DNA of 64,000 nt from Siphonodentalium dalli. Lineage: Eukaryota > Mollusca > Scaphopoda > Gadilida > Siphonodentaliidae. This document shows, one piece after another, positions 4,078-63,723 of this stretch. The notes beneath the pieces are model-generated. The model was given only the letters and a program-made list of their open reading frames with translations, did no database searches and had not been told where the DNA came from. The position numbers and the translations under genes are program-made. The stretch covers positions 66,115,319 through 66,179,318 of the forward strand of contig CP136069.1 in NCBI GenBank assembly GCA_032622095.1, in the 5' to 3' direction. Position 1 is the stretch's first letter. Every line of letters starts with the position of its first letter.

Positions 4078-4146
4078 TTATGAACGAAGAAATGCACATG
4101 TGATATATTTCAACAAATTTATTAAATACTCAAGATATATATAAAC

Positions 4147-4661
4147 AGCTGACGGAAATGTAGCTGCCAGGGCGTTTTGGGCAGCTGTCTCATAATCTGT
4201 GAAAATTCCACTTGGGCTGATGGTGATGTCGAGTTCTGCTGCCCTTTCTTTCACCAGATTGAAGAAACGTTGGTATGTGTGTTGGGTCTTGTTGGGAAGT
4301 AAGCCATACACCAAAGGGCACATCTTTCCGGCGACGAATGCGTGTATCGTGTACAGTTGAAAGAAGATCGTTGGGCTTTTCTCAAACGTTCCATCACAGA
4401 AGATCGTTCCGGTAACAGCTAAATTTTCTAGATTTTCTCTGGTCGCGAATATCATAATCTTTTCAGTCTCTCCGCCATCGGCTAGTAGGGAGTTGTGGTT
4501 GTTGGCTGTTGTTTTGTATACATCAGGAAGGTCGACACCTGAACGATGAATTGGTAACTTTGGCTGGTGTTCGGCTCTGGCATGATACAATGCTGTTTTG
4601 ACGCTGTAATATGTCGGGATTTTCGCTATAATTTCAGGGTCGGTCTCGTCTGCTCGAAGAT
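4147..4661 (-). CDS. MULE transposase fragment, exon 2 (DDE core)
   Basis: Minus-strand exon encoding the first part of a MULE-type DDE transposase domain. A strong acceptor (pyrimidine tract ending CTCCAACAG) precedes 4661. Reading continues in phase from exon 1 at 5187-4881 through a split Asn codon. The frame shows FCDGTF, with the first catalytic Asp, then a PLVYGLLPNKTQHTYQRFF stretch typical of MULE transposases, then IFTDYETAAQNA, with the second Asp. After TFPSA the reading ends at a possible donor (GTTTAT) at 4146, or runs on to a stop at 4078. The part expected to carry the catalytic Glu and the C/H motif is not seen. It is therefore a 3'-truncated element or one with undetected further exons. 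Family assignment is firm; activity is not implied. Confidence 0.75.
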
Positions 4662-4880
4662 CTGTTGGAGAGAAAAAATAGCATGGTTAAATTATAAACA
4701 TTAATAGAGTTATTACTTGCTTAGTATTCTCTATTCTTTAATAATAATTATAATATATATAATATAACATTACACCAGTTTTACTTTTGTTATTACTTGC
4801 TTAGTTTTCTTTCTGAATACTAATATAAAGAGCGTTGCCGGATTAATGAGAATGCGAAATTAAATTTACTCAGTACATAC

Positions 4881-5187
4881 TTCCTATTTCTTCCTGGTAT
4901 AGCGTTGTTACTGGCTTGTTACTTGTCTTAACAAGCTTTTTGAGGTCTGCAATCCAGGAATCTGCTGCTACTTGGTTGAAATCAGGTTCGTCGTTATGGT
5001 TGCCGCTGTTGGATATCACCATATCGTTCTCAGTGTTGGTGGTTGCACGGCAGTCTTTCTTACAACATCGCCAATGAATTCGATCATTTCTCCTTGATTT
5101 AACGGCGAATTTGTAGTCATCATATACCAGATACTTTCCACCTCTAGTATTTGGAATATAATTTACGTTCACTTGTGTGCTTGCCAT
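4881..5187 (-). CDS. MULE-associated FLYWCH-like zinc-finger exon 1
   Basis: First coding exon of the MULE-like gene, starting at the ATG at 5187. It encodes about 102 residues before a good donor (GTATGT) at 4880. The N-terminal part has the FLYWCH zinc-finger pattern: a hydrophobic YLVYDDYKF strand, then IHWRCCKKDCRA with the Trp and paired Cys, then a spaced HN at SGNHND acting as the His ligand. FLYWCH fingers commonly sit in front of MULE transposase domains and also occur in domesticated host genes. The intron to exon 2 is 219 bp and keeps the frame. I infer one transposon-derived gene, broken at its 3' end. Confidence 0.7.
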
Positions 5188-5530
5188 CGTGTTTATGTCA
5201 GACCAGGGAATCTAACAGTATATATATTCAGTAGTGAACTCTACTTAAAACACTGATAATAATTCATAATACATCTTTACAAACAAATAATAAAACGTGT
5301 AAAATAAATAAACTGATTGTGGCTCACGCTATTAAACGTTATTCACCACCAACAGTTATGGACTGTGACAACACTGGACCGCAGGTGTTTTGATATGGAC
5401 TATAATCTCCGCCGGCCAAGTCGTTAATCTCTGCCTGCCGGGTAGACAGGATATACCCGGGATATCCACCTTGAACATTACAACTGCACCCCCTTGAACC
5501 AGATCTATATTCAACCTAAGTTAGTCATAG
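5188..5530. other. Upstream flank of the MULE gene, nothing further recognised
   Basis: AT-rich. It should hold the promoter and terminal repeat of the MULE if these survive, but I could not match a terminal inverted repeat on the other side. Confidence 0.35.
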
Positions 5531-6720: not shown

Positions 6721-7432
6721 TAGATCCTATCCGCCCAATGCCACATTCTCCGTGCGGCAAAATCAGAACAAATTGTGATGTTATTAACCCTTCCATGACT
6801 GGAGCTTCCTGAACTTTTGCGAAAACCCTGTGCCAATGCATTCTCTGATATATGCCATCATCGTATAGGGAGCCTCGTATATACAAGAGAATACATTGGC
6901 CTAACAATATTTACCTTTACAGTGTATAGGACAGTGAATTCTCTAATATATGCGAGGCTCCCTTTGGGATACTCGCATATATAAGAGAATGCATTGGCAC
7001 GGGATTAAAGAAACAAACATTGAAAGAAGAAAGAACAAAAAAGCAAAGAAGAAGAAGTAAACAAAAATAGGTTTAGATCATTTTGCCCATCGCCTCATTG
7101 TTGTGTATTCCTTCATCACAGCGCCAAAATCATATCTAATTGGGTTGTAGGGAAGGGGTGCCGCCCGTTCCAAATCCTCCCGGGTTCAGTCCCAATTTCC
7201 AATACAAACAAAAAACGGGGTGAAAGAGCTGTATTTGACAAATTCACCCCGTGGATTCCAATGTCACGAATTAACTGCTATATTGTCCGTCATATTTTGG
7301 TGAGAAACAAAAATGATTGTTATAAAAAAAATGTTTTCTTTTCCAGATATCATTCTAGAAGGGTTAATATAACATCACATTTTGTTCTGGTTTGTCCGCA
7401 GGGAGACTGTGACATTGGGTGGGTTGGGTCTA
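6721..7432. repeat. Inverted repeat flanking the TTAA element
   Basis: 6721-6787, reverse complemented, matches 7363-7432: TTAATA-ACATCACA-TTTGTTCTG, then GCATTGGGCGG against ACATTGGGTGG, then GGRTCTA. The arms overlap a TTAA site at each side, indicating nested or composite TTAA-target insertions. Confidence 0.6.
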
Positions 7433-7485
7433 ATAATGGCACATGCTCTTAATGCTGCACCAGCGCAGTTCCAGTCATGAAAGGG
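6788..7485. mobile_element. piggyBac-like TTAA element, family 2 (698 bp)
   Basis: TTAA at 6784-6787 and 7486-7489 brackets terminal repeats CCCTTCCATGACTGGA and, inverted, CCCTTTCATGACTGGA (one mismatch). TTAA target sites with CCC-starting ends are the hallmark of piggyBac-type elements. No transposase is present. It encloses a degenerated pair of the hairpins found intact in family 1 (6830-7000). A second AAGGGTTAA at 7359-7366 suggests a nested boundary. Confidence 0.6.
7140..7200 (+). repeat. Possible tRNA-derived SINE fragment
   Basis: GGGTTCAGTCCCAAT resembles a tRNA B box, about 40 bp downstream of a weak A-box-like TTGTAGGGAAGGGG. I do not see a cloverleaf. Could be coincidental. 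Confidence 0.2.
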
Positions 7486-7584
7486 TTAAAGCGGTTTCAC
7501 AAACTTTCGGTCACAATTAACACAAAGATGCTGGGTTCACTGGACATGTCGGGCATTAACTCTTTGGATACTAAATGGATTCCC

Positions 7585-10041: not shown

Positions 10042-10370
10042 CAAACTAAGAGATAGAGTTATTCCCCTTCAATTGAGAATAATATACTTTACAATACAGT
10101 CTGGGTCAAAATTAAGCACAGAACACACCTCGGTACATCGACAAAAACAGTACGTTCCAAGTTTATTCGACAGGATCAGTTGATAATACAATGTTTTGGA
10201 GCTTCCTCTTTTCAAATGGTATATAATATGGAATATGCTGTATAAAATGTGATCTGGTGATTCGAAAATTAAGTGGGCCTTTAACTGGAGCGACCGCGAG
10301 ACGAGAGCACTGTATTTCATTACATCGATCATAAAAACCATTAACCCTTTACCCAACAGAAGGGCCCTGT

Positions 10371-10439
10371 GCCAATGCATTCTCTTATATATGCGAGTCG
10401 ACCATAGGTCGCCTCGCATATATAAGAGAATGCATTGGC
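10371..10439. repeat. 69-bp near-perfect hairpin
   Basis: Starts GCCAATGCATTCTCTTATAT and ends with its complement. Two paired segments (27 and 5 bp) are separated by one T/C mismatch and closed by a 3-nt ATA loop. The twin at 10519-10587 is its exact reverse complement. Confidence 0.95.
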
Positions 10440-10518
10440 TTAACACATTAAAAATTATAAAATTGTTAAAGAATGTAACAAAAAATGGTAAAAAGTGTTA
10501 AAAAAAGATTTTTTTTAG

Positions 10519-10587
10519 GCCAATGCATTCTCTTATATATGCGAGGCGACCTATGGTCGACTCGCATATATAAGAGAATGCATTGGC
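10519..10587. repeat. 69-bp near-perfect hairpin, inverted twin
   Basis: Exact reverse complement of 10371-10439. Because each hairpin is itself nearly palindromic, the pair could form two local hairpins or one long stem. Confidence 0.95.
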
Positions 10588-11208
10588 ACAGGGCATAACT
10601 GTAACTATCACAATGTGGTCAAGGAGCCGGTTCCAATGATATCCATATTTGTATGGTTCTATTGAGACAGACCGAAGATATTTTAGGCTGTTGAAGCTTT
10701 ATTTGGCCGGTTGTGGCCGGTTTGTTGGGTAAAGGGTTAAAGGTGGGCGATAATAAATGTAATAATTTCTGTTGTAGTGTGTCTATTGCAATGCGTTCTT
10801 TTCAATCTCATGTGATAATTGTGTTACACAATTTACAGCGTTCATTTCAGTGATTATCTGTGATGCAAGAACATAACGAACAAAAATAAAATATGAAACA
10901 AAAACAAAGACCAAGCCAGTGGATGTGCCCGTTATTTATATATAAAATATTAATTATATATATGCATGGAATTGAGGGAAAGAAATTCACACTCTGTACA
11001 ATGTACCCAGTTCTTCACACACCGATATGGGTCTGTAACCTCAATAAAATCAGAGGGTACGGAATGACCCGGGAAGTTACGAGGTGACTCAGCTGCATGG
11101 AGGTTACGAGTTGACTCATAATCGGGTACCAGTTGACTATTTTCAGAGGGTACGAACTGATTAGGGTACGAAATAACTTGATCCCAGTATTCAAAATATT
11201 AATTATAT

Positions 11209-19855: not shown

Positions 19856-20008
19856 ATACCAGTTAACATAGGGGGTGAATACTTAATGCCAGTTAACACA
19901 GGGGGTGAATACTGAATGCCAGTTAACATAGGGGTGAAAGCTGGATAACAGTTAACAAAAGTGGTGAATACTAAATGCCAGTTAACAGAGGGGTGAAAAT
20001 TGAATGTC
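19856..20008. repeat. 28-bp minisatellite, first array
   Basis: About five copies of a unit like GCCAGTTAACATAGGGGTGA followed by ATACTGAAT. A frame through it encodes repeated LTG..Y.P only because of the repeat. Confidence 0.9.
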
Positions 20009-20260
20009 AGTCAACTTGACTTCAAACGTATTTTATTGGCATATAATACAAAAGGGATCAGGGCACAAGTTTGTTCAACTCATGAAGCCCCTCTCCCAAT
20101 AGAAATAATTAGGGATACAAAATGTTTACAAGATAACAACTGAACTTATTTACATGCATGGGTTTGTGATTTTATGGTGCTTGTTGTAGTGCCTTCAAGA
20201 GGATATTGTTGATTTGGTAGCTATAACATTTGGTGGAGTTTGTGTTATTCTTTGTTCGTC
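20009..20260. other. Spacer between minisatellite arrays
   Basis: About 250 bp of non-repetitive sequence that resembles an inserted retroelement end (short TTTATTGGCATATAATACAA start). Identity not established. Confidence 0.35.
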
Positions 20261-21010
20261 GGTTAACATAGGGGTGAATACAGAATGTCAGTTAACATAG
20301 GGGTGAATACTAAATACCAGTTAACATAGAGGTGAATACTGAATGCTAGTTAACATATGGGTGAATACTGAATACAAGTTAACATGTGGGTGAATACTGA
20401 ATACCAGTTAACATAGAGGTGAATACTGAATGCTAGTTAACATAAGGGTGAATACTGAATACAAGTTAACATGTGGGTGAATACTAAATACCAGTTAACA
20501 TAGAGGTGAATACTGAATGCTAGTTAACATAAGGGTGAATACTGAATACAAGTTAACATGTGGGTGAATACTGAATACCAGTTAACATAGGGGTGAATAC
20601 TGAATACCAGTTAACATAGGGGTGAATACCGAATACCAGTTAACACAGGGGTGAATACTGAATACCAGTTAACATTTGGGCGAATACCAGTTAGCATAGG
20701 AGTGAATTCTGAATGCCAGTTAACATAGGGTGCATACTGAATGCCAGTTAACATGAGCGTGAATACTGAATGCCAGTTAACATAGGGTGAATACTGAATG
20801 CCAGTTAACATAAGAGTGAATACTGAATACCAGTTAACACAGGGTGCATACTGAATTCCAGTTAACATAGGGGTGAATACTGAATACCAGTTAACATTGG
20901 GGTGAATACTGAATGCCAGTTAACATAGGGGTGCATACTGAATACCAGTTAACATAGGGGTGAATACTGAGTCGCGTACCAGGCATTTATTTGAATACTG
21001 AATACCAATT
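20261..21010. repeat. 28-bp minisatellite, main array (about 26 copies)
   Basis: Unit CAGTTAACATAGGGGTGAAT followed by ACTGAATAC, with variants (GTGGGTG, GGGTGCAT, CTAGTTAAC). Variant pairs alternate between about 20300 and 20560, showing local higher-order duplication. Confidence 0.95.
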
Positions 21011-21242
21011 AAAGTCACATGGCGGTTTGCGCTAAAAATACATATAATAATATTCGATAAATACCCTGGACTACCTTCCTATGAGCATTATACATCACAA
21101 AAATATATCACAACAAAATTGAAGTCATTTGTATTCATCGGAATTCTGGAATCGGAAACGGAAATTCCGGAAAAGGTATAATTGCGTTATCTTGTTCCAA
21201 TTTGTAGCAATCGAAGTATATAGCGATCTTATAATGTATGAA

Positions 21243-24200
21243 TTAACAATAAGTTTCATACATCGATTACCATAACAGGGCGTGATAATAAACCACGGGT
21301 TATAATAATTTCATATATCGATTACCATAACAAGGTGTGATAATAAACCACGGTTTATACTAACTTCATATATCGATTACCATAACAGGACGTGCTAATA
21401 AACCACGGGTTATAATAACTTCATGTCGATTACCATAACATGGCGTGATAATAAACCACGGTTTATACTAACTTCATATATCGATTACCATAGCAAGGCG
21501 TGATAATAAACCACGGTTTATAATAACTTCAGATATCGATTACCACAACAGGGCGTGATAATAAACAACGGTTTATAATAACTTCATATATCGATTACCG
21601 TAACAAGGCGTGATAATAAACCACGGTTTATAATAACTTCATATATCGATTACCATAACAGGGCGTGATAATAAACCACGTGTTATAATAACTTCATATA
21701 TCGATTACCATAACAAGGCGTGATAATAAACCACGGTTTATGATAACTTCATATATCGATTACCATAACAAGGCGTGATAATAAACCACGGGTTATAATA
21801 ACTTCATATATCGATTACCATAACAGGGCGTGATAATAAACCACGGGTTATAATAACTTCATATATCGATTACCATAACATGGCGTGATAATAAACCACG
21901 GTTTATAATAACTTCATATATCGATTACCATAACAGGGCGTGATAATAAACCACGGGTTGTAATAACATCATATCGATTACCATAACAGGGCGTGATAAT
22001 AAACCACGGTTTATACTAACTTCATATATCGATTACCGTAACAGGACGTGATAATAAACCACGGGTTATAATAACTTCATATCGATTACCATAACATGGC
22101 GTGATAATAAACCACGGTTTATAATAACTTCATATATCGATTACCATAGCAAGGCGTGATAATAAACCACGGTCTATAATAACTTCAGATATCGATTACC
22201 ACAACAGGGCGTGATAATAAACCACGGTTTATAATAACTTCATATATCGATTACCGTAACAAGGCGTGATAATAAACCACGGTTTATAATAACTTCATAT
22301 ATCGATTACCATAACAGGGCGTGATAATAAACCACGTGTTATAATAACTTCATATATCGATTACCATAACAAGGCGTGATAATAAACCACGGTTTATGAT
22401 AACTTCATATATCGATTACCATAACAAGGCGTGATAATAAACCACGGGTTATAATAACTTCATATATCGATTACCATAACAGGGCGTGATAATAAACCAC
22501 GGGTTATAATAACTTCATATATCGATTACCATAACATGGCGTGATAATAAACCACGGTTTATAATAACTTCATATATCGATTACCACAACAGGGCGTGAT
22601 AATAAACCACGGGTTGTAATAACATCATATCGATTACCATAACAGGGCGTGATAATAAACCACGGTTTATGATAACTTCATATATCGATTACCATAACAG
22701 GGCGTGATAACAAACCACGGGTTATAATAACTTCATATATCGATTACCATAACAAGGCGTGATAATAAACCACGGGTTATAATAACTTCATATATCGATT
22801 ACCATAACAAGGCGTGATAATAAACCACGGTTTATAATAACTTCATATATCGATTACCATAACAGGGCGTGATAATAAACCACGGTTTATAATAACTTCA
22901 TATATCGATTACCATAACAAGGCGTGATAATAAACCACGGGTTATAATAACTTCATATATCGATTACCATAACAGGGCGTGATAATAAACCACGGTTTAT
23001 AATAACTTCATATCGATTACCATAACAGGGCGTGATAATAAACCACGGTTTATGATAACTTCAGATATCGATTACCATAACAGGGCGTGATAATAAACCA
23101 CGGGTTATAATAACTTCATATATCGATTACCATAACAAGGCGTGATAATAAACCACGGGTTATAATAACTTCATATATCGATTACCATAACAGGGCGTGA
23201 TAATAAACCACGGTTTATAATAACTTCATATATCGATTACCATAACAGGGCGTGATAATAAACCACGGGTTATAATAACTTCATATATCGATTACCATAA
23301 CAAGGCGTGATAATAAACCACGGTTTATAATAACTTCATATATCGATTACCATACCAAGGCGTGATAATAAACCACGGGTTATAATAACTTCATATATCG
23401 ATTACCATAACAAGGCGTGATAATAAACCACGGTTTATAATAACTTCATATATCGATTACCATAACAAGGCGTGATAATAAACCACGGTTTATAATAACT
23501 TCATATCGATTACCATACCAGGGCGTGATAATAAACCACGGTTTATATTAACTTCATATATCGATTACCATAACAGGGCGTGATAATAAACCACGGGTTA
23601 TAATAACTTCATATATCGATTACCATAACAAGGCGTGATAATAAACCACGGTTTATAATAACTTCATATATCGATTACCATAACAATGCGTGATAATAAA
23701 CCACGGTTTATAATAACGTCATATATCGATTACCATAACAAGGCGTGATAATAAACCACGGTTTATAATAACTTCATATATCGATTACCATAACAAGGCG
23801 TGATAATAAACCGCGGTTTATAATAACTTCATATATCGATTACCATAACAGGGCGTGATAATAAACCACGGTTTATAATAACTTCATATCGATTACCATA
23901 ACAAGGCGTGATAATAAACCACGGTTTATAATAACTTCATATATCGATTACCATAACAAGGCGTGATAATAAACCGCGGTTTATAATAACTTCATATATC
24001 GATTACCATAACAGGGCGTGATAATAAACCACGGTTTATAATAACTTCATATCGATTACCATAACAAGGCGTGATAATAAACCACGGTTTATAATAACTT
24101 CATATCGATTACCATAACAGGGCGTGATAATAAACCACGGTTTATAATAACTTCATATATCGATTACCATAACAGGGCGTGATAATAAACCACGGGTTAT

Positions 24201-37826: not shown

Positions 37827-39081
37827 TTAAAGTTACATAATCCGATTTAACGCCCCTAAAGTATTTCTTCGGCTTCGGGGGTAAAAAAATAATAGATTTT
37901 AGTCGTGGAACCCACACATCAAAGCTCAGAGTTATCAGATTTCTAGTTTAGAAATCTTTTATTTTTCACCACCTCGAATATTTGACGGCCTGGCAAATAT
38001 TCGACGAATGCCGACTGACAATACATGTACTCTCGGAAGAAAAGGTTGATATATAACACTTTTTGGGCAACTTTATACTATAGTTATAGCACCATTTTTG
38101 GAAATTAATCGATTATGATAACTGAAGCGGCATTTAACCCTTTACCCAACAAACCGGCCAAAACCGGCCAAATAAAGCTTCAACAGCCTAAAATATTCGG
38201 TCTGTCTCAATAGAACCATACAAATATGGATATCATTGGAACCGGCTCCTTGACCACATTGTGATAGTTACAGTTATACCCTGTGCCAATGCATTCTCTT
38301 ATATATGCGAGTCGACCATAGGTCGCCTCGCATATATAAGAGAATGCATTGGCCTAAAAAAAATCTTTTACCATTTTTTCTTACATTCTTTAACAATTTT
38401 ATAATTTTTAATGTGTTAAGCCAATGCATTCTCTTATATATGCGAGGCGACCTATGGTCGACTCGCATATATAAGAGAATGCATTGGCACAGGGCCCTTC
38501 TGTTGGGTAAAGGGTTAAAGAAATGTTGTTGTTGGAATCTGACGACGACGGACGCTTTAGTTATCATAATCGATTAATTACCAAAAACATAATCTAATCA
38601 CTGTCAACTATATAGTCTAAATTTCCCAAAATGTGTTATATATCAACATTTTGTTCAACGTAATGTGGTATCGATGGTATGTCGGTCGGCTCGTCGAATA
38701 TTTGCTAGGCCGGATAGCACATAAATGTATTCTCTGCGTTGTTTGTGCAATGTTACATAGCTCCTAATCAGAACACCAAACGGTATATCTATGTTTTGAA
38801 CCGGTGGGTTATGATGGAGTACGGCCATAACCAGAGTAGACAGTTTAAGGGCGAATATTAAATGTTCTCTCCATTTCGAATTGTAAAACGGGAAACGTAT
38901 CCGATGAATTTTAGTTAATCGTAAATTTTATGTTATTTTCAACCAAAACAAAATCAAAAATCGATATCTGATAACTCTGAGCTTTGATGGATGGTTTCCT
39001 CGACTCGAATCCAATATTTTTTACTCTCGAAGCCAAAGAGATAATAATTTAGGAGCGTTAATTCGGATTATGTATCGTTAA
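37827..39081. mobile_element. Head-to-head pair of TTAAAGRTAC MITEs with a nested insertion
   Basis: 37827-38137 plus 38515-38545 is a reverse-orientation copy (TTAAAGTTACATAATCCGAT start) split by the 377-bp piggyBac-like element. It runs into a forward-orientation copy (about 38550-39081) ending AATTCGGATTATGTATCGTTAA. The nested order shows the piggyBac-like element inserted later. Confidence 0.7.
38138..38514 (-). mobile_element. piggyBac-like TTAA MITE, family 1, copy 2 (377 bp)
   Basis: TTAA at 38134-38137 and 38515-38518; ends CCCTTTACCCAACA inverted. It carries both 69-bp hairpins intact. Inserted in another MITE, whose uninterrupted sequence (GAAGCGKCATTTCTAAAAAT) is seen at 27285-27305. 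Confidence 0.92.
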
Positions 39082-44181: not shown

Positions 44182-44631
44182 CCCTTTACCCAACAAAACG
44201 GCCAAAAACGCCCAAATAAAGCTTCAACAGCCTAAAATATCTTCGGTCTGTCTCAATAACACCATACAAATATGGATATCATTGGAACCGGTTCATCGAC
44301 CACATTGTGATGGTTACAGTTGTGCCCTGTGCCAATGCATTCTCTTATATATGCGAGTCGACCATAGGTCGCCTCGCATATATAAGAGAATGCATTGGCC
44401 TAAACAAAATATTTTTTAAACACTTTTTACCATTTTTTCTTACATTCTTTAAAAAAAAAATTCTTACATTTTTTAACAATTTTTATAATATTTTTCTACA
44501 TTCTTTGACAATTTTATCATTTTTAATATGTGTTAAGCCAATGCATTCTCTTATATATGCGAGGCGACCTATGGTCGACTCGCATATATAAGAGAATGCA
44601 TTGGCACAGGGCCGTTCTGTTGGGTAAAGGG
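44182..44631 (-). mobile_element. piggyBac-like TTAA MITE, family 1, copy 3 (450 bp)
   Basis: TTAA at 44178-44181 and 44632-44635, with CCCTTTACCCAACA ends. Both 69-bp hairpins are intact. It is longer than the others because the AT-rich spacer (TTTTTTACCATTTTTTCTTACATTC-type) is partly triplicated. Confidence 0.92.
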
Positions 44632-51849: not shown

Positions 51850-51983
51850 ACTGATTGGTGAACTGCCAGTTGAGTACCGCATTTTATATCAAAATTAAAC
51901 GCACCATATAACATGATCCCCCGCCGTCACGTTTTGTTGACTTTGATGACTAAAACGAATGATAGAATAACCGGACGTGTTGA

Positions 51984-52664
51984 TTAAAGATACATAATCC
52001 GATTAAACGCCCCTAAATTAAAATTCCTTTGGCCTCGGTTGATTCGAGTCGAGGAACCCACCCATCAAAGCTCAGAGTTATTAGATATCAATTTTTGAAA
52101 TCTGTTATTTTTCGCCACCGGGAATATTTGACGGCTTGGCAAAAATCTTACAGAAATAGTACAGACATGCGCACACGCAATTACGAGAGGTCACACAAGG
52201 TCGATGCTCCATGTGTGTTCACTGGCGACCAAATGATTTGTAATAGAAGTCGATAAAAAGCATCGCCATCAACAAGAATGCGGTATGTTGTGATAGTTGA
52301 TGACGGATACATGAATTATACTTAATTAAATATGTAATAATGTTTTATCCATGCAAATAGCCATGATATATGGCACCATGTTGGTTACACGTGGAAATAC
52401 TATGTGTTTTCAATTCGTGACAACAATTGTTGGGGAATTCCAATTTGAATTAGGAATCACCATATATGGAAGTTGTAAACCACACTCACTCATCTTCAAA
52501 TTGCCAAGAAAAACGGTTATTGTAGTAATTTTACGACAAATATGATATCGTGATTGGTATTCTTGTGAGTATTTTTTGGATAACTTAATCGGCTTTTGGT
52601 GAAATTCCGTTGTTGTTGTACCTGGATGATACAGGGACCATCGAATCGGATTGTGTACCTTTAA
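51984..52664. mobile_element. TTAAAGRTAC-family element, long copy (681 bp)
   Basis: Ends TTAAAGATACATAATCCGAT and, inverted, TTAAAGGTACACAATCCGAT. The middle from about 52170 to 52600 is not shared with short copies, so it is either a fuller element or one with an insertion. A twin copy is at 62151-62831. Confidence 0.75.
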
Positions 52665-53467
52665 GTGTGCAGTCGTAGACTAAGCTATAAATAGTTTGAC
52701 AGGTAGGAATGTTGGGCTAACTTGCAGTGCTGCATGATATAGTATTTTGATTGTCAAACAATTGGAACATGGAAACTGCAGACCGATTTCAAAAGAAAAA
52801 ATTCAGCTGATTTCATAGAAATTAATATGGAAAAATCTATATAAATATAAGAAATTATGTAGTTTTAGTGTTTTTTTAGCGGTATGTCGCTGTGGCCGCT
52901 GGGACATTTATATTATTGTGAAATGTTACACACTACGATATTTACTAAAAATTCATGTAAAATTTTACAAGTGATATCTCTGTCGTAATCCATACCAAGT
53001 ATCACACAGTAATCTGAGTACAGATACGAACGGGTTGATGAGGCATTGTGCAGCTTTCCGTATCTGAGTACAACCAATGCCGTCTCGTCATTTTCATAAT
53101 AGAGTTATTGTTCGTTGTTTGTTGGTAGAATGAATATCTTAGTGTAAATATATTTTTTATTTCCAAATCCGAACAAATAACATGATATACAAACGACTCA
53201 TAAATGCAAAATAGACGTGTTAATATATGGATACCAGGATCGGACAACAAGCCCGAGGGCTTATATGAAGTATGTTCCCCTTTGACTAAATGTCGCGTAC
53301 CCAATACGTGAGAGAGGGGTATAGTTCAAACGGGAATGGTTGGAAATAACGATTTTCAGAGAATTGGATATATATAGCAGAATCTGAGTTAGACATGGAA
53401 TAAAAAGGAAGAAGATAGTACTCATGATAGCAGGGGCAGAGAAAGAAGAGAGGGGGAGAGAAGGGGG

Positions 53468-53469
<2 letters not shown>

Positions 53470-53528
<59 letters not shown>
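53470..53528. repeat. (GA)n microsatellite, 59 bp
   Basis: About 29 uninterrupted GA units. The poly-Ser/Leu frame is an artefact of this. Confidence 0.97.
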
Positions 53529-53531
<3 letters not shown>

Positions 53532-53883
53532 CCTGACAATAAGAAATAGATCTATCCCCCCCCCCCCCAGCCAGTACGTGTTTATTTTATAATTGCAGGA
53601 AATATGCTCATATTGGCATTATTTGGAAACTTAAATACGCTCTATATGTGCATAAACGCAGGTGTTCGATGTTCAAAAAGATCCTTCACCCCACTGCTTG
53701 TCTTTGTCTGCTTACTTGCTTCATTTATAGAGCTGAAATCGAGGCTTGCCCAGGCAACCACATCTATGGATTCAGGTTTATGCCACACCGGATGCGCGTG
53801 TAAACTATACTGTATATCTATCTAACCGGAGAACTGTTGAACGCGACAAAACGTCAACTATACTAGTATATTCTTTGTCTTAA

Positions 53884-54264
53884 CCCTTTACCCAACAGAA
53901 GGGCCCTGTGCCAATGCATTCTCTTATATATGCGAGTCGACCATAGGTCGCCTCGCATATATAAGAGAATGCATTGGCTTAACACATTAAAAATTATAAA
54001 ATTGTTAAAGAATGTAAGAAAAAATGGTAAAAAAAGATTTTTTTAGGCCAATGCATTCTCTTATATATGCGAGGGGACCTATGGTCGACTCGCATATATA
54101 AGAGAATGCATTGGCACAGGGCATACCTGTAACTATCACAATGTGGTCAAGGAGCCGGTTCCAATGATATCCATATTTGTATGGTTCTATTGAGACAGAC
54201 CGATGATATTTTAGGCTGTTGAAGCATTATTTGGCCGGTTTTGGCCGTTTTGTTGGGTAAAGGG
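53884..54264 (+). mobile_element. piggyBac-like TTAA MITE, family 1, copy 4 (381 bp)
   Basis: TTAA at 53880-53883 and 54265-54268, with CCCTTTACCCAACA ends. Two 69-bp hairpins; the right one has a single G-for-C type change (GAGGGGACC). Very similar to 10345-10736. Confidence 0.92.
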
Positions 54265-54326
54265 TTAAGTTTTCACTATATTTTCCGGTGTCCCAGCACC
54301 TGCATAGTCCGTACTACGGGAAACAA

Positions 54327-54520
54327 CCAAAGCAAGCGAAAAAAATCAAACGAAATTTCGCGCATTACATAATTATATACGTGTAGTGCTACGCTTTCTG
54401 ATGGAAACCAAGTGCACGGGCACTATTTGTATTTTGTCGCCGAGGAAAAGGCAAAGAATTACAACGAAACAATATCCAACGAAATTTCGTTTGACTATTT
54501 CGCTTTCATAGCTTGTTCCG
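54327..54520. repeat. TTCG-type foldback, small copy
   Basis: AAGCAAGCGAAAAAAATCAA, ACGAAATTTCG at the left is matched inversely by ACGAAATTTCGTTTGACTAT, TTCGCTTTC at the right. Related in wording to 28087-28605. Confidence 0.7.
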
Positions 54521-54589
54521 CCATGCAATATATACAGTGGTTTACAAGCGCACCCGGGTGGCATTAACGGGATTCCATACATTTCGAAT

Positions 54590-54780
54590 GGTCGGCCACG
54601 CGTGTTGTATCACTAGATTCCATATATGGATTGTTAACGACGATCAGGCTATCCTGACTCGCTCCAGTATTCAAGTTGGCTGACCTGCCCAGGGCAGTCT
54701 TTCTGAGTGGTCGGCCACGCGTTTTGTATTTCTAGATTCCATCTATAGATTGTTATGGGCGATCAGGATTTCAGGTTGTA
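54590..54780 (+). repeat. Two-copy tandem repeat, 119-bp period
   Basis: GTCGGCCACGCGTKTTGTAT, CTAGATTCCATMTATRGATT and GCGATCAGG recur at 54591 and 54710. Confidence 0.8.
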
Positions 54781-55130
54781 CATGCTCTGATCTCAACTCT
54801 CGTCGCCAAGAATTTTTTTCATACTTATACCAGCCATTCCGTTGTGTGACGCGGGCCACAGTGTAAACACAAGTGGATTAGTTTTTAGATGGAGAATAAC
54901 CGTGCCAAATTTTTATTATAATGGAACCCATATTTCGGAGAGAGAAAAACACCCATAAATATTAAGGGGAACTTACGTTTTATGTGTTAGTTTCCGGAGG
55001 ACGCATAATAATAATTTATATTTTTATAATAATAATTTATGTTGTAATACGACCCTGCCTAACTATGATTAAAAGCCATGTCTTGATTGGCCAGTTGCCC
55101 GAGTTGCCATGGCTATCTCGTTCCAGTTTT

Positions 55131-55163
55131 GTGGTACAATTCTACTTTTTCCAATTGTACCAC
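55131..55163. repeat. 11-bp perfect inverted repeat
   Basis: GTGGTACAATT and AATTGTACCAC around an 11-nt loop. The GTGGTACAA core also appears in the long hairpin at 56132-56278. Confidence 0.85.
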
Positions 55164-55639
55164 GAACAAAATCGGTTTATTCAGATCGCCGCACGCGACT
55201 TTTCCCGTCTTTTCTAACTCCGCGCAAACGGGGCATCATAGGAGTACACCCGCACCCGTAACCCTTTGAATTTTGCTACATCTTGACAATCTTGCGAATT
55301 TTCTAGCGATTTGTCGCTTGAAAGCAGTTTGGTTGCCAATGAATATGGTCCAAATGATGTTATGGTATATTGATATATGTTACGACCAAAGAAAGTTACT
55401 TAATAGGTATATTAAATGACAAAATAAATCAGTAAAATTGTATTTGCCATGGGGCCGGGCTGTGCATTCGTCGATTCGAATCTCGATCATATTCGATATT
55501 TCGGAATCAAGTTGAAACTGAAAGCGTTTTTTTTTGTTCACCAGAAGGGAAATAAGATTAGTTTAGTAAACTAGATCATTTAGATCGCTTTGTGTAAGGA
55601 AAATGGTCCATAGTCGATGATCATATTCATGATGTCCCA

Positions 55640-55900
55640 ACAACGTTCAACACAGAAATGACCGCAATGGCGATTGTGATTTGGGGGGCTAACCCCGGGA
55701 TGGTCGATTTTTTTTTTTTTGAGTAATGATAAAAATGGCGATAAATGACGTTAAATGACCGCAATATAAGAGAGTGGTTCGGGGGGCTAGCCCGGGATTG
55801 TCGAAAGGGCCGAGAGGTCTGTTCCTTCACCCCTCACAATTTTGTTTTGGAGTAATGATAAAAATGGCGATAAATGACGTTAAATGACCGCAATCGTGTT
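55640..55900 (+). repeat. Two-copy tandem repeat, about 129-bp period
   Basis: GAGTAATGATAAAAATGGCG then ATAAATGACGTTAAATGACC at 55721 and 55850. The preceding GGGGGGCTAR.CCCGGGATKGTCGA segment is duplicated too. Confidence 0.85.
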
Positions 55901-56131
55901 TCCTGTACAATTTAAATGAAAGGCACGGGCGCCGCTGAAAACACATCCTTTTTCAACCAATCACAACGATTATTTACGCAAACAAATTACCAGAGTACTC
56001 CGTGCAAAGAATTCGAATACGCCCAATAAGAATTACACCACGAAATGTTTTCTCATCTGAGACCGAAAAAGCGCAGTATTTCGTTGACTATTCAGTCGAA
56101 TTAAGACCAGAAACTTTCAGTCGTATTATAA

Positions 56132-56278
56132 AAGAAATAAATACACGGTGTATCGGTGTGTATGGTAAAGTTGTACCACAAAAAACTGATTGTAGGACGA
56201 CGCTACGCGTCGTCCTACAATCAGTTTTTTGTGGTACAACTTGACCATACACACCGATACACCGTGTGTTTATTTCTT
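56132..56278. repeat. 147-bp hairpin with 72-bp arms
   Basis: Arms 56132-56203 and 56207-56278 around a 3-nt loop, with only two mismatches in 72 positions (near 56146 and 56167). The centre is GGACGACGCTACGCGTCGTC. The left arm includes TTGTACCACAAAAAACTGAT. No clear terminal element boundary. Confidence 0.95.
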
Positions 56279-56993
56279 AATTATATAACCTAAAACCACA
56301 TGTGTACGGTATATACAAAGTGAATATGTTGTTACAACATGTGGGATAAAATATATACATAACAGTAATCTATACTAAATACATAACATGTAACACCACG
56401 CGCACGTGAGTGTTATGTACATTGCTAACAGTTTCAAACATGGACATATACAATCTCTACCAGAGCGCACCAGTCATACTTCCTTTCTGACCATTCGCCG
56501 GCTGGATACTAGTCTGTGGTTTTCTATATTTAGCGTGGGTTTTTCTAGAAAATGGCGAAACCGCGATAGACCAAATCAAATTTCCTGTGTTCTTTGAAAA
56601 CAATTCCCGTACTAAAAACTTATTGACAAATGGCGAATTATGGTGGTAGCTTTGTTGACGATTTTCGCACTTTATTTAGCAAAATGGCAGCAAATAGGAA
56701 CTCTGGTGTTTGACTGGCCATGAATGTTGTCGTCCATGTGCGTTTAGACTTTGATAAATTAATCGGAGAACCAAATCACACCGTTTATCACTATAGTTCT
56801 TTGGTTCTTGAGGGCCTTTCCAAACTTAAGGTACGAAATTAGAAATTTATTTTTCGATATTTTGTGTGCTTAGTAACGACAACATGTTGCTCTATTTGTA
56901 TTCGCTTAGCCTATATTTTTATATCTCGGAAGTACAATGGAGACGGTAATTCCGTCAAATCCTAAATTGGAGATAATTGAAACTAAGACTAAC
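56279..56993. other. Intronic DNA of the fucolectin/PAN gene, nothing recognised
   Basis: No repeat or gene recognised between the hairpin and the FTP exon. Confidence 0.4.
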
Positions 56994-57236
56994 CTGAATG
57001 AAATATGTCGAGATCACTGTATATTTCCAACTCGCACATGGTCATAACATTTCCCAAACCTATGGCTTGAAGTCGCACATATCTCCCATGAACTGGAGTT
57101 GTGCAGTTGAAATAAATATATTGGCCGAACGTTCCTGTTCCAGGGAAGTATAAGCATTCAGATGTGAAGCCAGAAAAGTCAGTAGGGTTCACCATAGATA
57201 CTGAAGTGTGGATCTTGAAGTTGCTCAGTCTCTCGG
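56994..57236 (-). CDS. Fucolectin/PAN protein, penultimate exon (FTP/F5-8C domain end)
   Basis: A 243-bp minus-strand exon between acceptor CATATTGACAG (ending 57237) and donor CAG|GTTAGT (from 56993). It begins with two bases of a codon and ends with one, so both borders are phase 1, the usual design of shuffled extracellular-domain exons. It encodes ERLSNFKIHTS, a loop with three Cys (TSEC, YFNC, MTMC) and GRYVRLQAIGLGNVMTMCEL then EIY. GRYVR.Q...(L/M)T.CE.E.Y is the C-terminal signature of fucolectin-tachylectin-4-pentraxin (FTP) domains, which bind fucose and calcium. The residues that contact fucose lie mainly upstream, in exons I cannot find in this window. It joins in phase to the PAN exon at 51352. 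Confidence 0.75.
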
Positions 57237-57726
57237 CTGTCAATATGATCAGACATGTATGTTAAAGTCACTGCGGTTTGAGCCCCGAACTAAACCTAAC
57301 AATATTTGATTTTGATTTGTTCCCGGTATCGAAATATGTCGATAAATACTTAAACTACATTTCTATGAGCATTATATGTCCCAGCAAGACGCACTGAAGT
57401 CATCCAAAAATACAACTTTGAACAAGGTGTTTATGTCCGAAACAGAACGCAGCCATTTGCACGACACAGAACAGAAAAGAGCGTTCCGCGTTAGTCTATT
57501 GCTGATATGGTCGAAATAAAGAGCGTCAGTTTAACTGCTGTGCGAAATGAAAACATCTGGAAAATGGCTGTGGTCATGGATGGTATTTTTTCAGAGCGTA
57601 TGAAGGCACTCTATCGTAGACAAAATTTGGAAGCTCGAATAAGTCATGCCCGTTTAAAGATACCTTGTCCTAGTTTGTATCAAATTAGTTAAAACTTTCA
57701 GTTTATGCAGTGACTTACTAGGCAAA

Positions 57727-57758
<32 letters not shown>

Positions 57759-57797
57759 CGTATGACACAATCATCGCGATAAAAATACAAATGAATC
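57237..57797. other. Upstream intron of the fucolectin/PAN gene
   Basis: Contains two AAAGAGCGTT motifs (about 57477 and 57523) and an ATAAATAAATAAATAA run near 57728-57756. TTCTATGAGCATTATA at 57361 also occurs at about 21077. Confidence 0.4.
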
Positions 57798-58145
57798 CAG
57801 AATATCATTACAGAGAACGCTCTTTATATAGGAGTACAGAATATCATTACGGAGAACGCTCTTTATACAGGAGTACAGAATATCATTACGGAGAACGCTC
57901 TTTATATAGGAGTACAGAATATAATTACTGATAACGCTCTTTATACAGGAGTACAGAATATCATTACGGAGAACGCTTTTAATATAGGAGTACAGAATAT
58001 AATTACGGAGAACGCTCTTTATATAGGAGTACAGAATAGCATTACGGAGAACGCATTTATATAGGAGTATAGAAAATATCATTACGGAGAACGCTCTTTA
58101 TATAGGAGTACAGAATATAATTACTGATAACGCTCTTTATATATG
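57798..58145 (-). repeat. 39-bp minisatellite, about 9 copies
   Basis: Unit GGAGTACAGAATATCATTAC followed by GGAGAACGCTCTTTATATA. Because 39 is divisible by three, a minus-strand frame of 13-residue repeats stays open. This is an expected by-product and no gene is called. Confidence 0.92.
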
Positions 58146-58248
58146 TGAAACCCCAAATATTCAACAACAAACATGATACATTTTAAATTCTGATTACAAT
58201 TGTGTATAGTTATTTTTTCATATATATATATGTATTGTTATTTGTGTG

Positions 58249-60547
58249 CAGTGTTCACACTGGCCCGAAATTTTCTTGAGCCACCACCTTAGCCACTTGT
58301 GAATTTTTTTGAGCCACTTTTCATTTACTTGAGCCACATTTTTCAACCCATATTATATTTTATCGTATCGATTATCTTTGACTAAATGTTGGTATGAGAA
58401 GGACCTCTTACATTCCACATTCGACACGGGTACACAATATAGTATTTATGCAAAGTCTGATATTATAGGACGCTAACAGGGTTGCACGGCGTAGCACGGG
58501 TTAAAGTGTAATCAAAACGTTAATAAATGTTGTCAATCGGTTGGTAAGCACACATACCAGTATGGATGAAGAGTTATGCTTTTTGTATCAATGTCATAGA
58601 TTATCCCGTTTCCATAAATTTGAATGTACCCCGATGCCCATAATGACATCGGGCGTCAAATTTGTTGAAGCCGGCGAACTTGTTATACAATTTTGGCGCC
58701 CCTTCCCCCGTCCATTCCTGACATGGACATCAACATGTTTGTGGTCTTTAAACTACACCATTATTTCATCATAGCACGCATGGAGAAGCCTATATACATG
58801 TTTATATGAGTATCGATGAAACAATTGTTTTGGTGCTCACCTCCCCGATCCACATTACCGATCCGAATGGTGCCACCTCGGAAAACGAACACTACACCAT
58901 TAGGTTCCTTATATCGCAGCCATACCTATATGTGTTCAGTATAAAGCGCGACAAACAAAAGTGCTAACGATATGGGTTCGCAGCGCGTCGCCGGTCATTG
59001 AGTCTCCACACAGCAGTGGCTTGGCCGCTTTGAGCGACTTGCAATTGTCGGATTGCTCGCTGTTTCAAACCCCGCGCCAAGTTGTTACCCTTGAGCAAGG
59101 TCGCTCGTTCTGTGTCAGCTTGTCATACTGATGAGTTTCAGAGCATGTTCTGATCAAACTAGAGCAGCGCCTGCAATGAATGCAGCCGGTTCATTGGTTG
59201 GCTTGTACAAATTACTGGGATAATATTGTACCAAGCGTATTAGAGCAAGTAATTGGTTCATCGCTATATAAAACTGGTCATCATTATTATTATTGTGTTT
59301 GTTCACTGTCCCCCACCCCCATGTTGGCTATATAAGTTTGGTATAAATGCCGGCAAATGTGGTGTTCATCCTAATTAGTGTCCAAGTGTTTGCACAGAAT
59401 GTCTTCGATATTGACCATATTGTATTTTATACGAGCCACCAACAGCCACCAAAACCAAAATTGTATATTTTATCTTATAACCATGGCCAGTTTCCTAAAA
59501 CAAAACCGACGATCGCCCATAAATATTTTCCACCTATTGCTAATAACAGGCCATACATTATACCGATAATGGGAGAACGGGACGCAGCTATAGTATATTC
59601 ATATGCATGATATGATCCCTCTAAATATTAAATTGAATCCCACCTGACTGAAAACTCTTTTGTCAACACCAGCAAGATGACATTTTATTATACAACGATG
59701 AACAGTGGCATGTATTTCTAAATGTATCAAACAAATCGATTGAACTGGAAGCTTCCATTGCCCTTCTGTGGATTGAAACACGTATCACTCGCTTTGTATG
59801 CGTTACTCACGGTGTTTGTGAAGACAGTTTATGTGTAAATTCGATAGCTACAACCGAACACGGGGTGTTTTAGCTATATTTCAAAGAACCCATGACACTA
59901 CAGTTGACATGTGCTGTCAACTCAAGAATGACTCTGGCTTGCCGTTAAAAGCGATGCGCATACTTCAACGTGGAGGCTCTTTAGTCGGGCGCGGACACCA
60001 GCATTTCAATTCCGCGCATTCTTTATACTTGACCATAAAGATGTGGTGGATCTTTCTTAACATGCTGATACTCAGATACCGTTTTGCGCGAAAGTGTTTT
60101 TCTTCCTTTTTTGTTCGTCTTCGGGGTGCATACATTCCTCATATATATATACAGCGTCATATATATTTATAATAATGACCCGCACCATTATCTTTCTCGT
60201 AAAAAAAGTACCCCAAATAGACCCCTCTGTTGTTATCTAGATGGTCACCTGTGAATTTCTATAGAACACAGACAGACGTTCGCAAATATATATATAGATG
60301 TGTCCTTTCTTTGTTTCACTAATTACAACCAGTCCATGTGGCATAAGCTGAGAATCAATTAGCGAGTGCTTTCATTTATACTCTCGTGGCGGGATAGTGT
60401 TGCCTGATTGTTAAACTTAATCTGTCGGACGGCAGTTAATTTAAGAGCCACACAACCAAATTCTTTGAGCCACTAGCCAATTTATTTTAGCCACATTTGT
60501 TTTTCTTTCGCAATTTACGAAATTTGCTCACGGCAGCGTGAACACTG
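58249..60547. mobile_element. hAT-superfamily element, non-autonomous (2,299 bp)
   Basis: Terminal inverted repeats CAGTGTTCACACTGGC and, inverted, CAGTGTTCACGCTGCC. They are flanked by perfect 8-bp target duplications TTTGTGTG (58241-58248, 60548-60555), the hAT length. Near both ends the motif TGAGCCAC or TAGCCAC recurs (at least four at the left, three at the right), likely transposase-binding sites. It is in the same orientation at both ends. No transposase frame was recognised, so mobilisation in trans is inferred. It contains a small secreted-peptide-like frame at 59347-59610. Confidence 0.92.
59347..59610 (+). CDS. Putative small secreted protein (87 residues) inside the hAT element
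   Basis: A frame of 87 codons preceded by TATATAAG at about 59329 and TATATAAAA at about 59264. The first 17 residues look like a signal peptide: hydrophobic VVFILISVQVF followed by a small residue and a possible cleavage FA|QN. The remaining 70 residues are rich in Pro, Tyr, Ile and Lys, with PPKPK, FPKTKP and YFPP motifs and no Cys. I do not recognise a family. A possible polyadenylation signal, ATTAAA, is at about 59628. It may be real cargo of the element or a chance frame. Signal-like hydrophobic starts arise by chance in AT-rich DNA. Confidence 0.3.
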   Translation: MPANVVFILISVQVFAQNVFDIDHIVFYTSHQQPPKPKLYILSYNHGQFPKTKPTIAHKYFPPIANNRPYIIPIMGERDAAIVYSYA

Positions 60548-61139
60548 TTTGTGTGGTGACATCGGCCCCGTGTGGGTGTAATTGTCAATAAACTTATCGT
60601 ATCTTATCTTCTTGGACCTAAATATTCACATAGGTTCACATTGGACTCATTTGAGTCTGAGATAATCCCATAGTAACTTATATCCGTTATTCCGTGTTAT
60701 TGCGCGGGCCACAGTGAAAATACATTACAAAGAGCGCACATCTGGTAAGTGTATTTAGGTTCATACTATCATACTATCAGGGTTACCCGGCGTTACCCAG
60801 GTTAAAATGGTGTGATACCCTCAGCTGTGGACATTTGTTGGGAATTGGGAATACTCTTGCTCAAAAGCATTCTCATAACTTGTATATCCAAATGGATTCA
60901 CAAAACGTAATTCTTATACATGATTATAGGTAGCGGCTCACACGTTGTCTGAGTTATTGTCATTTTGTTTATCGCGATTAATTCGTCACACAAATAAAGA
61001 AGTATTTATTTACAAATGTGCGTACTTCAGATGTTAGCATTTTTAAATTGTACAGTCGAAGTGGTTGCAAGTGATGTTTTTTTTTAAAATAAATATTTTT
61101 ATTGGGATCAAAACATGAACATCACAAACACATAAGCCT
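60548..61139. other. Intergenic, nothing recognised
   Basis: Begins with the hAT target duplication. No other structure supported. Confidence 0.4.
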
Positions 61140-62068
61140 ATACCAGCACTCATATTTAACGATGAATTGATAAATGACAACTTACAAAAAGCCAACACCT
61201 TCAACAAATACTTTTGTTCTATATCGTCATTGCCAAAACGAAAGGGAGATAGAGTTACCTCGCTTTGACCAGTTAACAGAAAGCGAACTAAGTGACATAG
61301 AAATCGACGACGAACTTGTTCTCAAATGCCTACGGTCAATTAAGACGTCAAAAGCCTCCGGTTATGATGGCATAAGCCCAAAAGTATTGAAAAACTGTGC
61401 CTCTTCCTTAACTGCACCATTAAGATTTATTTTTAATATTTTTTAAAAACATGCATACTTTCCCATTGAGTGGAAGAAGGCAAATGTATGTCCAATCTTT
61501 AAAAAAGATGACCCTTGTATACCGTCAAACTATCGCCCTGTTTCCCTTCTGAGTTGTCTCTCTAAAATCTTTGAAAAATGCATATACCGTCGTCTGTCAG
61601 ACTATTTGCGTGAACACAAATTGTTGTCCGATCTGCAATCAGGGTTTACTCCCAACGACAGTACTGTGTTTCAATTAATCGACATATACCACTATATCAT
61701 ATCATCACTAGATGAGGGGAAAGAAATAAGATATGTCTTTTACGATATTAGTAAAGCTTTTGATAAGGTCTGGCATCGAGGACTGCTCTTTAAAATTGAA
61801 AAGAATGGGAATAACAGGAAATATGTATAAACTTCTTGAGAATTACTTGGAATCTAGAGAGCAGAGAGTTACAATAAATGGGGTGAGCTCTAATTGGATG
61901 CCTGTTTCAGCTGGAGTCCCCCCAGGGGTCCTTACTCGGCCCTCTGCTATTTTTGGTCTACATAAATGATATTGTTGGAGGGATAACTAGCAATATTCGC
62001 CTATTTGCGGATGATACTTCCCTTTTTCTTGCCATTGAAGACCCCACCCTTGCTGCCAACTGCACCAA
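61140..62068 (+). pseudogene. CR1/jockey-like non-LTR reverse transcriptase, broken
   Basis: Polymerase domain of a LINE ORF2. The reading shows FNKYF, then DDELVLKCLRSIKTSKASGYDGISPKVLK (written here only to locate 61310-61400: key motif SGYDGISPKVLK). It continues with SNYRPVSLLSCLSKIFEKC, FYDISKAFDKVWHRGLLFK (first catalytic Asp), a GVPP(Q)G box and RLFADDTSLFLA (catalytic Asp pair). Damage is a frameshift near 61240, an in-frame TAA near 61442, a frameshift near 61800 (A-run) and another near 61920 (C-run). The 5' endonuclease part is missing. The 3' end is cut sharply at 62068, exactly where the duplicated segment begins. Clade assignment (CR1/jockey/L2 group) rests on motif wording only. 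Confidence 0.85.
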
Positions 62069-62150
62069 CGCACCATAACATGATCCCCCGCCGTCACGTT
62101 TTGTTGACTTTGATGACTAAAACGAATGATAGAATAACCGGACGTGTTGA

Positions 62151-63635: not shown

Positions 63636-63637
<2 letters not shown>

Positions 63638-63720
<83 letters not shown>
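63638..63720. repeat. (GA)n microsatellite, about 83 bp
   Basis: Longer than the left-copy tract (59 bp), the main difference between the two duplicated segments. Confidence 0.97.

Positions 63721-63723
<3 letters not shown>

What the first reader, a model, noticed from the sequence alone, without database searches (positions are those of the whole stretch)
10345..10736. TTAA-target MITE carrying twin, mutually inverted 69-bp hairpins, present four times
Copies at 10345, 38138, 44182 and 53884 share CCCTTTACCCAACA ends and TTAA borders. All carry two 69-bp hairpins that are exact or nearly exact reverse complements of each other. The hairpins stay almost invariant while the AT-rich spacer varies in length (377 to 450 bp total). 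That suggests either recent spread or selection on the hairpin. Each hairpin has a 27-bp stem, a mismatch, a 5-bp stem and a 3-nt loop, a plausible small-RNA precursor or a transposase-bound structure.
Basis: partly seen in the sequence, partly recalled or inferred. Interest (0 to 1): 0.7.

Follow-up and report, generated by a model that had tools for sequence, protein, structure and literature searches.

The report
Shared hairpin cassette in TTAA MITEs
This large genome holds tens of thousands of small, gene-less jumping DNA elements that carry one or two almost identical DNA hairpins, and the same hairpin turns up inside elements with different ends, which suggests a reusable part that either helps such elements spread or gets copied between them.

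Summary
Four copies (377-450 bp) have 14-bp inverted ends, TTAA on both sides and two mutually inverted 69-nt hairpins. The genome (2.23 Gb, 9 contigs) holds 45,784 + 45,828 exact TTAA-CCCTTTACCCAACA ends, control 0. In 34 well-aligned copies at independent sites, hairpin arms have no variant shared by 3 or more copies (0 of 108 sites), against 8 of 127 flank and 7 of 66 spacer sites. They are not invariant: both hairpins are perfect in 15 of 34.

Beyond the finding, the same hairpin sits between other ends: TTAA families B/C (CCCTTTCATGACTGGAGCT), D (CCCTTTGAGTGCCAGG, one hairpin) and E, one complete element flanked by TA/TATA. It is 69/69 identical in A, D and E. Evidence for kept pairing is mixed.

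I read these as piggyBac-type MITEs sharing a portable hairpin cassette, most likely kept as a cis-acting mobility sequence; homogenisation by recombination is the main rival. Some resident piggyBac transposons share the CCCTTT tip, but none of 50 flanks examined has the full end; the nearest differs at 4 of 14 bases. Closest precedent: coral CMITEs.

The parts
10345..10736 (-). MITE family A, copy 1 (392 bp), TTAA at 10341-10344 and 10737-10740; '-' means the long flank is on the right
10371..10439 (+). hairpin 1 of copy 1 (69 nt)
10519..10587 (-). hairpin 2 of copy 1, exact reverse complement of hairpin 1
38138..38514 (+). MITE family A, copy 2 (377 bp), TTAA both sides
38285..38353 (+). hairpin 1 of copy 2
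38420..38488 (-). hairpin 2 of copy 2, exact reverse complement
44182..44631 (+). MITE family A, copy 3 (450 bp, longer AT-rich spacer), TTAA both sides
44331..44399 (+). hairpin 1 of copy 3
44537..44605 (-). hairpin 2 of copy 3, exact reverse complement
53884..54264 (-). MITE family A, copy 4 (381 bp), TTAA both sides; duplicated with its flanks at L048 76-456
53910..53978 (+). hairpin 1 of copy 4
54047..54115 (-). hairpin 2 of copy 4, one difference
6788..7485 (+). MITE family B copy with different ends (CCCTTCCATGACTGGAGCT / CCCTTTCATGACTGGAACT), TTAA at 6784-6787 and 7486-7489; carries two related hairpins plus about 420 bp that matched no other held B copy
6832..6900 (+). hairpin 1 of the family B copy (decayed)
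6930..6998 (-). hairpin 2 of the family B copy; inner stem TCCC/GGGA

Best explanation
These are non-autonomous DNA transposons (MITEs) of the piggyBac type: TTAA target, tip CCCTTT. They carry a portable cassette, CCCTGT + 69-nt hairpin + CTAA..., in one or two mutually inverted copies. Shown: the elements, their TTAA borders, their number, the lower variation of the hairpin arms, and the same cassette between at least three different TTAA-type ends and one TA-type end. Inferred: a piggyBac-family transposase supplied in trans moves the elements, and the hairpin is kept because the lineages that carry it are mobilised better. [quoted passage not shown] The cassette would pass between families by recombination or template switching at the hairpin during gap repair. 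Rough weights: TTAA MITE 0.95, piggyBac type 0.85, portable cassette 0.85, cis-acting role in mobility just under 0.4.
For: 45,784 forward and 45,828 reverse exact 18-mer ends, control 0. 48 of 54 sampled pairs have TTAA on both sides (most were picked by one exact end with TTAA, so only the other end is an unbiased test). None of 54 pairs has fewer than two hairpin arms. Arms: 0 of 108 sites with variants shared by 3 or more copies, against 8 of 127 flank (p=0.008) and 7 of 66 spacer sites (p=0.0009), 34 independent copies. Same hairpin, 69/69, in families A, D and E, whose flanks show no evident likeness by eye beyond the CCCTTT tip of A and D. Over 17 hairpins, 13 cells have a change on both sides of a pair, 5.0 +/- 1.7 in shuffles, 0 of 500 as high; covariation score 0.114 against 0.066. 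In the complete copies read of each TTAA family at least one hairpin starts 26-47 nt from a tip. 128 piggyBac transposase matches, many without stops; TTAA-CCCTTT upstream of 3 of 10 examined. PiggyBac CRD dimers bind a 19-bp palindrome inside the ends (PMC7351741, passages).
Against: No transposase locus with CCCTTTACCCAACA ends: in 50 flanks the nearest TTAA-bordered end has 4 mismatches in 14; only 116 of 649 candidates were scored. Family E has TA/TATA borders (L089 4808-5263), which a piggyBac-specific role does not explain. The deficit of singletons in the arms is modest against the flank (5.4 and 9.3 per 1000, p=0.05) and not significant against the loops (5.4 and 8.8, p=0.26). Two of the covariation measures do not exceed shuffles: pairs with a change on both sides 4 (shuffled 3.6, 254 of 500 as high) and further pair types 12 (12.2, 354 of 500). 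In piggyBat, subterminal binding sites restrict rather than help activity (PMC11707139, abstract sentence and passages). Family D does with one hairpin. A binding site would need about 20 bp, not a 69-nt near-perfect palindrome.
Confidence: 0.42

Rival explanations
1. Passive homogenisation. The hairpin has no function in mobility; as a long palindrome it is a hot spot for breakage, template switching and ectopic gene conversion, which both copies it between MITE families and keeps copies alike.
For: Identical 69-mers in families with different ends. Family C combines B-like ends with A-type hairpins and spacer, as a cross-over in the hairpin would. Two of the four double-changed pairs lie side by side in the inner stem, as a fold-back copying tract would leave. 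Arms in a 79-nt tandem array at L090 2482-2759 show local copying.
Against: No clear excess of shared changes between the two hairpins of one copy: 1 observed, mean 0.2 and at most 3 in 1000 shuffles, 40 copies, and no pair restored by a second change within a hairpin. The T:C mismatch beside the inner stem is kept in at least 90% of the 17 hairpins of A to E.
Confidence: 0.32
2. Small-RNA or double-stranded RNA precursor: read-through transcripts fold, and the products act on host genes or against silencing of the MITE.
For: Very stable fold, z about -14, on either strand; whole element folds to -215.8 kcal/mol, z -19.8; some compensatory changes.
Against: No Rfam family in the window. An apical loop of 3 nt closed by 5 bp is unlike a microRNA precursor (recalled: Drosha substrates favour loops of about 10 nt or more). 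Such folding follows from any near-perfect palindrome.
Confidence: 0.1
3. Recent burst only: all copies descend from a few source elements that happened to share the hairpin; nothing is conserved.
For: Low divergence of family A copies.
Against: The source elements did diverge in flank and spacer (8 of 127, 7 of 66 sites) but not in arms (0 of 108); the hairpin is shared with family B, whose copies are more decayed, and with D and E.
Confidence: 0.1
4. The cassette is itself a transposon (ends CCCTGTGCC...GGCACAGGG) that inserted into other MITEs and then travelled with them.
For: Outer border at CCCTGT in most hairpins read; in E the flanks read ...TTA / TAA..., as a TA duplication would. D-like elements without hairpin (L007 2274-2453, L089 3305-3440) match D up to CCCATAT.
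Against: No target duplication is seen at the cassette border in A, B or C; D has one hairpin without the mirrored border. Free-standing copies were not searched for systematically in the held DNA, and the genome-wide search for TTAACCCTGTGCC... did not complete.
Confidence: 0.1

Closest known systems
CMITE families of Acropora corals (PMC2872659; abstract, sections 10 and 15 and passages read)
   Same: TTAA duplication, tips mostly CCCTTT, several families with different terminal repeats but one conserved internal region, tandem arrays, piggyBac relation, origin of the internal region unknown
   Different: CMITEs are about 100 bp with a 75-nt internal region; 'hairpin' and 'palindrom' do not occur in the paper's main text. 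Here the shared part is a 69-nt hairpin, often doubled in inverted order, in elements of about 180-700 bp
piggyBac transposon ends (PMC7351741, PMC11707139; passages read)
   Same: TTAA target; palindromic sequence inside asymmetric ends, bound by CRD dimers
   Different: palindromes of about 14-19 bp; in piggyBat subterminal sites are inhibitory; no 69-nt hairpins in the passages read
Highly conserved domains of SINEs, e.g. V domain captured by the MITE MER6 (PMC6887750, abstract read)
   Same: a conserved non-coding part shared by different kinds of mobile element
   Different: SINE-derived, kept across metazoans; not described as a hairpin pair in the abstract
Foldback elements and palindromic TTAA repeats (recalled, no call)
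   Same: long inverted repeats
   Different: here the palindromes are internal, not the termini

Membership tests
MITE | short, non-coding, terminal inverted repeats, target duplication, high copy number | tested here: met
piggyBac superfamily (non-autonomous) | TTAA target site duplication | tested here: met
   48 of 54 pairs with TTAA on both sides
piggyBac superfamily (non-autonomous) | terminal CCY tip as in resident piggyBac transposons | tested here: met
   TTAA-CCCTTT upstream of 3 of 10 transposases, and one downstream end CCCTTTGAACCC of 40; other resident families end otherwise, e.g. CACCATACCC
piggyBac superfamily (non-autonomous) | autonomous partner with the same terminal repeats | tested here: inconclusive
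   not in 40 downstream and 10 upstream flanks, from 128 matches; nearest 4 mismatches in 14
piggyBac superfamily (non-autonomous) | mobilised by a piggyBac transposase | not testable with these tools
   needs an assay
CMITE | internal region conserved across families with different ends | tested here: met
CMITE | the CMITE internal sequence itself | not tested
   part of the paper's query was seen, no likeness by eye; no alignment was run
microRNA precursor | match to a described RNA family | tested here: not met
   0 matches at gathering scores in the window
microRNA precursor | processed small RNAs from one arm | not testable with these tools
   no reads

The most novel reading that the evidence does not exclude
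The hairpin is a portable mobility part that works, or is copied, across transposon superfamilies: it sits in MITEs with different TTAA ends and in an element with TA ends, and pays its way by raising the transposition or survival of whatever carries it, a second-level parasite or helper of MITEs.
Probability: 0.2. Interest if true: 0.75.

Novelty: new variant of a known kind. Interest (0 to 1): 0.5.

Why it matters
How MITEs reach tens of thousands of copies, and why some share an internal region although their ends differ, was left open by the coral CMITE study. Here one genome offers several families with the same hairpin cassette, a hairpin-less relative of one of them (D) and piggyBac transposase genes with open frames, so the role of an internal hairpin in mobility, or its spread by recombination, can be tested directly.

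Tried and rejected
Autonomous partner: 900-nt downstream flanks of 40 piggyBac transposase matches and 1,500-nt upstream flanks of 10 of them were scanned. Directly beside TTAA the nearest stretches to CCCTTTACCCAACA have 4 mismatches (L100) or 5 (L095; CACCATACCCACCG-type ends in L068, L072, L075, L087, L088; TTGTTCACGCAACA-type stretches in L055 and the same family), and the nearest to the B end has 6 (L078). Away from TTAA, 14-mers with 3-4 mismatches to the A end and one 16-mer with 4 mismatches to the B end (L054, L056-L058, one transposase family) occur and were set aside. The 2,398-bp pair L033 1133-3530 was taken at first for a possible autonomous element; by reading its sequence it is a family A copy with about 2 kb of other DNA in its spacer; no frame search was run on it.

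Gene conversion between the two hairpins of a copy: tested, no clear signal. The IMG/VR and GTDB collections hold no exact 21-nt arm. Literature: six searches for related elements or mechanisms found CMITE as nearest, and one for six of the sequences found 0 papers; this covers only the open-licence library. The species was not identified; a mollusc is a guess from memory.

Limits. The family A sample is mostly from the first 6.5 Mb of contig C1. Of 54 pairs, 1 over 600 bp and 2 identical ones were dropped, 7 of the 51 left as sharing a flank with another (one of them by one flank only), and 10 of the 44 for gaps in hairpins or flank. Copies were mostly picked by an exact end, so the low rate in the terminal repeat is biased. 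Family E rests on one complete element and two partial ones, family C on one complete element, the other families on few copies. Covariation was counted on 17 hand-picked hairpins (15 distinct).

Full report
Observation. The window holds four elements at the stated coordinates. All eight ends are exact CCCTTTACCCAACA, all have TTAA outside, and each element has two 69-nt hairpins with a 27-bp stem, a mismatch, a 5-bp stem and a 3-nt loop (folded for copy 1). Three of the four pairs of hairpins are exact mirror copies; the fourth differs by one base. The element is polar: one hairpin starts 26 nt from a tip, the other about 147 nt from the opposite tip.

Genome-wide. The window lies in a 2,226,750,531-base genome of 9 contigs. 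The 18-mer TTAACCCTTTACCCAACA occurs 45,784 times forward and 45,828 times reverse; the same letters read backwards occur 0 times. With two ends per element, and both ends exact in 46 of 54 sampled pairs, this is of the order of 50,000 copies (inference; some lie in what look like large tandem arrays near C1:735-915 kb, by the spacing). I fetched stretches around listed ends, the window's neighbours and seven arbitrary 10-kb stretches and, with the loci and the window, paired ends within 3.5 kb: 54 pairs, each with at least two hairpin arms; 48 of 54 have TTAA on both sides.

Rates. 51 copies were aligned to copy 38138 (54 less one of 2,398 bp and two identical). After joining copies with matching flanks, 44 insertion sites remain, 34 well aligned. 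Sites with a variant shared by at least 3 copies: arms 0 of 108, loops 0 of 30, ends 0 of 28, long flank 8 of 127, spacer 7 of 66; shared by at least 2: 2, 0, 0, 13 and 14. Singletons per 1000: arms 5.4, loops 8.8, ends 4.2 (biased by the way copies were picked), flank 9.3, spacer 14.4. Arms against spacer p=0.0005, against flank p=0.05, against loops p=0.26. An earlier count without removing duplicates (40 copies) gave much the same picture. So source lineages changed in flank and spacer but hardly in the hairpins; single copies do lose them: 40 of 51 keep both at full length, and both are perfect in 15 of 34.

Other families. BLAST of the hairpin against held DNA found it between other ends. 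Family B: CCCTTTCATGACTGGAGCT, TTAA, about 250-260 bp in the short copies, two hairpins with inner stem CTCCC/GGGAG; in the window at 6788-7485. Family C: L019 5412-5879, B-like ends with A-type hairpins and AT-rich spacer. Family D: CCCTTTGAGTGCCAGG, TTAA (one of 12 ends reads TTGA), one hairpin; L001 1050-1279 and L003 1054-1279 (neighbours of a duplicated A copy, so not independent), L028 3412-3633 and L031 2988-3170 (hairpin shortened), L029 1825-2089, L090 3852-4090. Family E: L089 4808-5263, ends TGTGACCCGCCATATCAAATCCAG with TA or TATA outside, two hairpins; partial copies, assigned by flank, at L033 742-972 and L090 3519-3618. In most hairpins listed the outer side reads CCCTGT or a near form and the inner side begins CTAA or TTA. 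D-like elements without hairpin, L007 2274-2453 and L089 3305-3440, match D for about 40 nt and part from it at CCCATAT.

Structure. In 17 hairpins of A to E (15 distinct), 88.5% of cells pair. Four pairs changed on both sides (A-U to G-C, C-G to U-A, U-A to G-C, C-G to A-U). The number of such cells, 13, exceeds shuffles (5.0 +/- 1.7), as do the covariation score and the percentage paired; the number of such pairs (4 against 3.6) and of further pair types (12 against 12.2) does not. The structure exceeds all versions slid by 1-3 columns. The tool warns that related sequences can exceed shuffles, so this is mixed evidence. The mismatch beside the inner stem is nearly constant. Within single copies there is no sign of correction between arms or between hairpins, so any upkeep of pairing acted at the level of lineages.

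Transposase. The genome has 128 matches to the piggyBac transposase domain PF13843 from 116 of 649 candidates scored, the best E 2.2e-94 in a 671-codon open frame. Of 40 downstream flanks one ends CCCTTTGAACCCTGG at TTAA (L078), with CTCTTTGAACCC upstream of the same gene (L091). TTAA-CCCTTT stands upstream of three others (L095, L097, L100). So some resident piggyBac transposons use the CCCTTT tip, others do not, and none examined has the family A end: nearest 4 mismatches in 14.

Mechanism. Shown: MITE anatomy, TTAA, abundance, lineage-level constancy of the hairpin, its presence between different ends. Inferred: piggyBac transposase in trans; hairpin as a cis-acting part, perhaps bound by the CRD, which in piggyBac binds a palindrome inside the ends (PMC7351741, passages), although subterminal sites of piggyBat are inhibitory (PMC11707139); exchange between families by recombination in the hairpin. 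The TA-flanked family E and the lack of a partner weaken the transposase-specific version; homogenisation by recombination explains nearly as much.

Known relatives. Coral CMITEs have the same logic, a conserved internal region with differing, mostly CCCTTT ends and TTAA (PMC2872659); their internal region is not called a hairpin in the text. I therefore call this a new variant of a known kind.

Noticed in passing
window 51908-64000: About 10.17-kb duplication: 51908-52207 repeats at 62075-62374 (100%) and a frame at 53002-53325 repeats at 63169-63492; MITE copy 4 and its twin at L048 76-456 belong to it.
   Followed up: partly
window 19868-23146 and beyond: Large tandem arrays: 29-bp units near 19.9-21.0 kb and 55-bp units from 21.1 kb (about 89 overlapping copies counted; only the first 30 listed, so the far end is not known).
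   Followed up: no
window 57747-58176: 39-bp tandem array.
   Followed up: no
window 56132-56278: Another long palindrome, 72-nt arms 97% complementary, 3-nt loop; no match to the MITE.
   Followed up: no
window 4078-5211 (-): MULE transposase domain and FLYWCH zinc finger in neighbouring frames.
   Followed up: no
window 61447-61830 (+): Fragment of a reverse transcriptase, RVT_1.
   Followed up: no
L090 2482-2759: Hairpin arms of family B type in a 79-nt tandem array of four units behind a B-type left end.
   Followed up: partly
L089 5000-5070, L090 3690-3760, L033 762-830: A second, diverged arm type (GGGAGCCCCACACATATATAGAAGCATAT...) that by eye resembles the hairpin arm.
   Followed up: no
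G000:C1:735542-915533: Family A ends recur at about 14.5-kb and 11.2-kb spacing, suggesting large tandem arrays with a MITE in each unit.
   Followed up: no
L026 745-760, L029 1345-1365: Family A copies sitting directly at the TTAA (or near it) that borders a family B copy.
   Followed up: no
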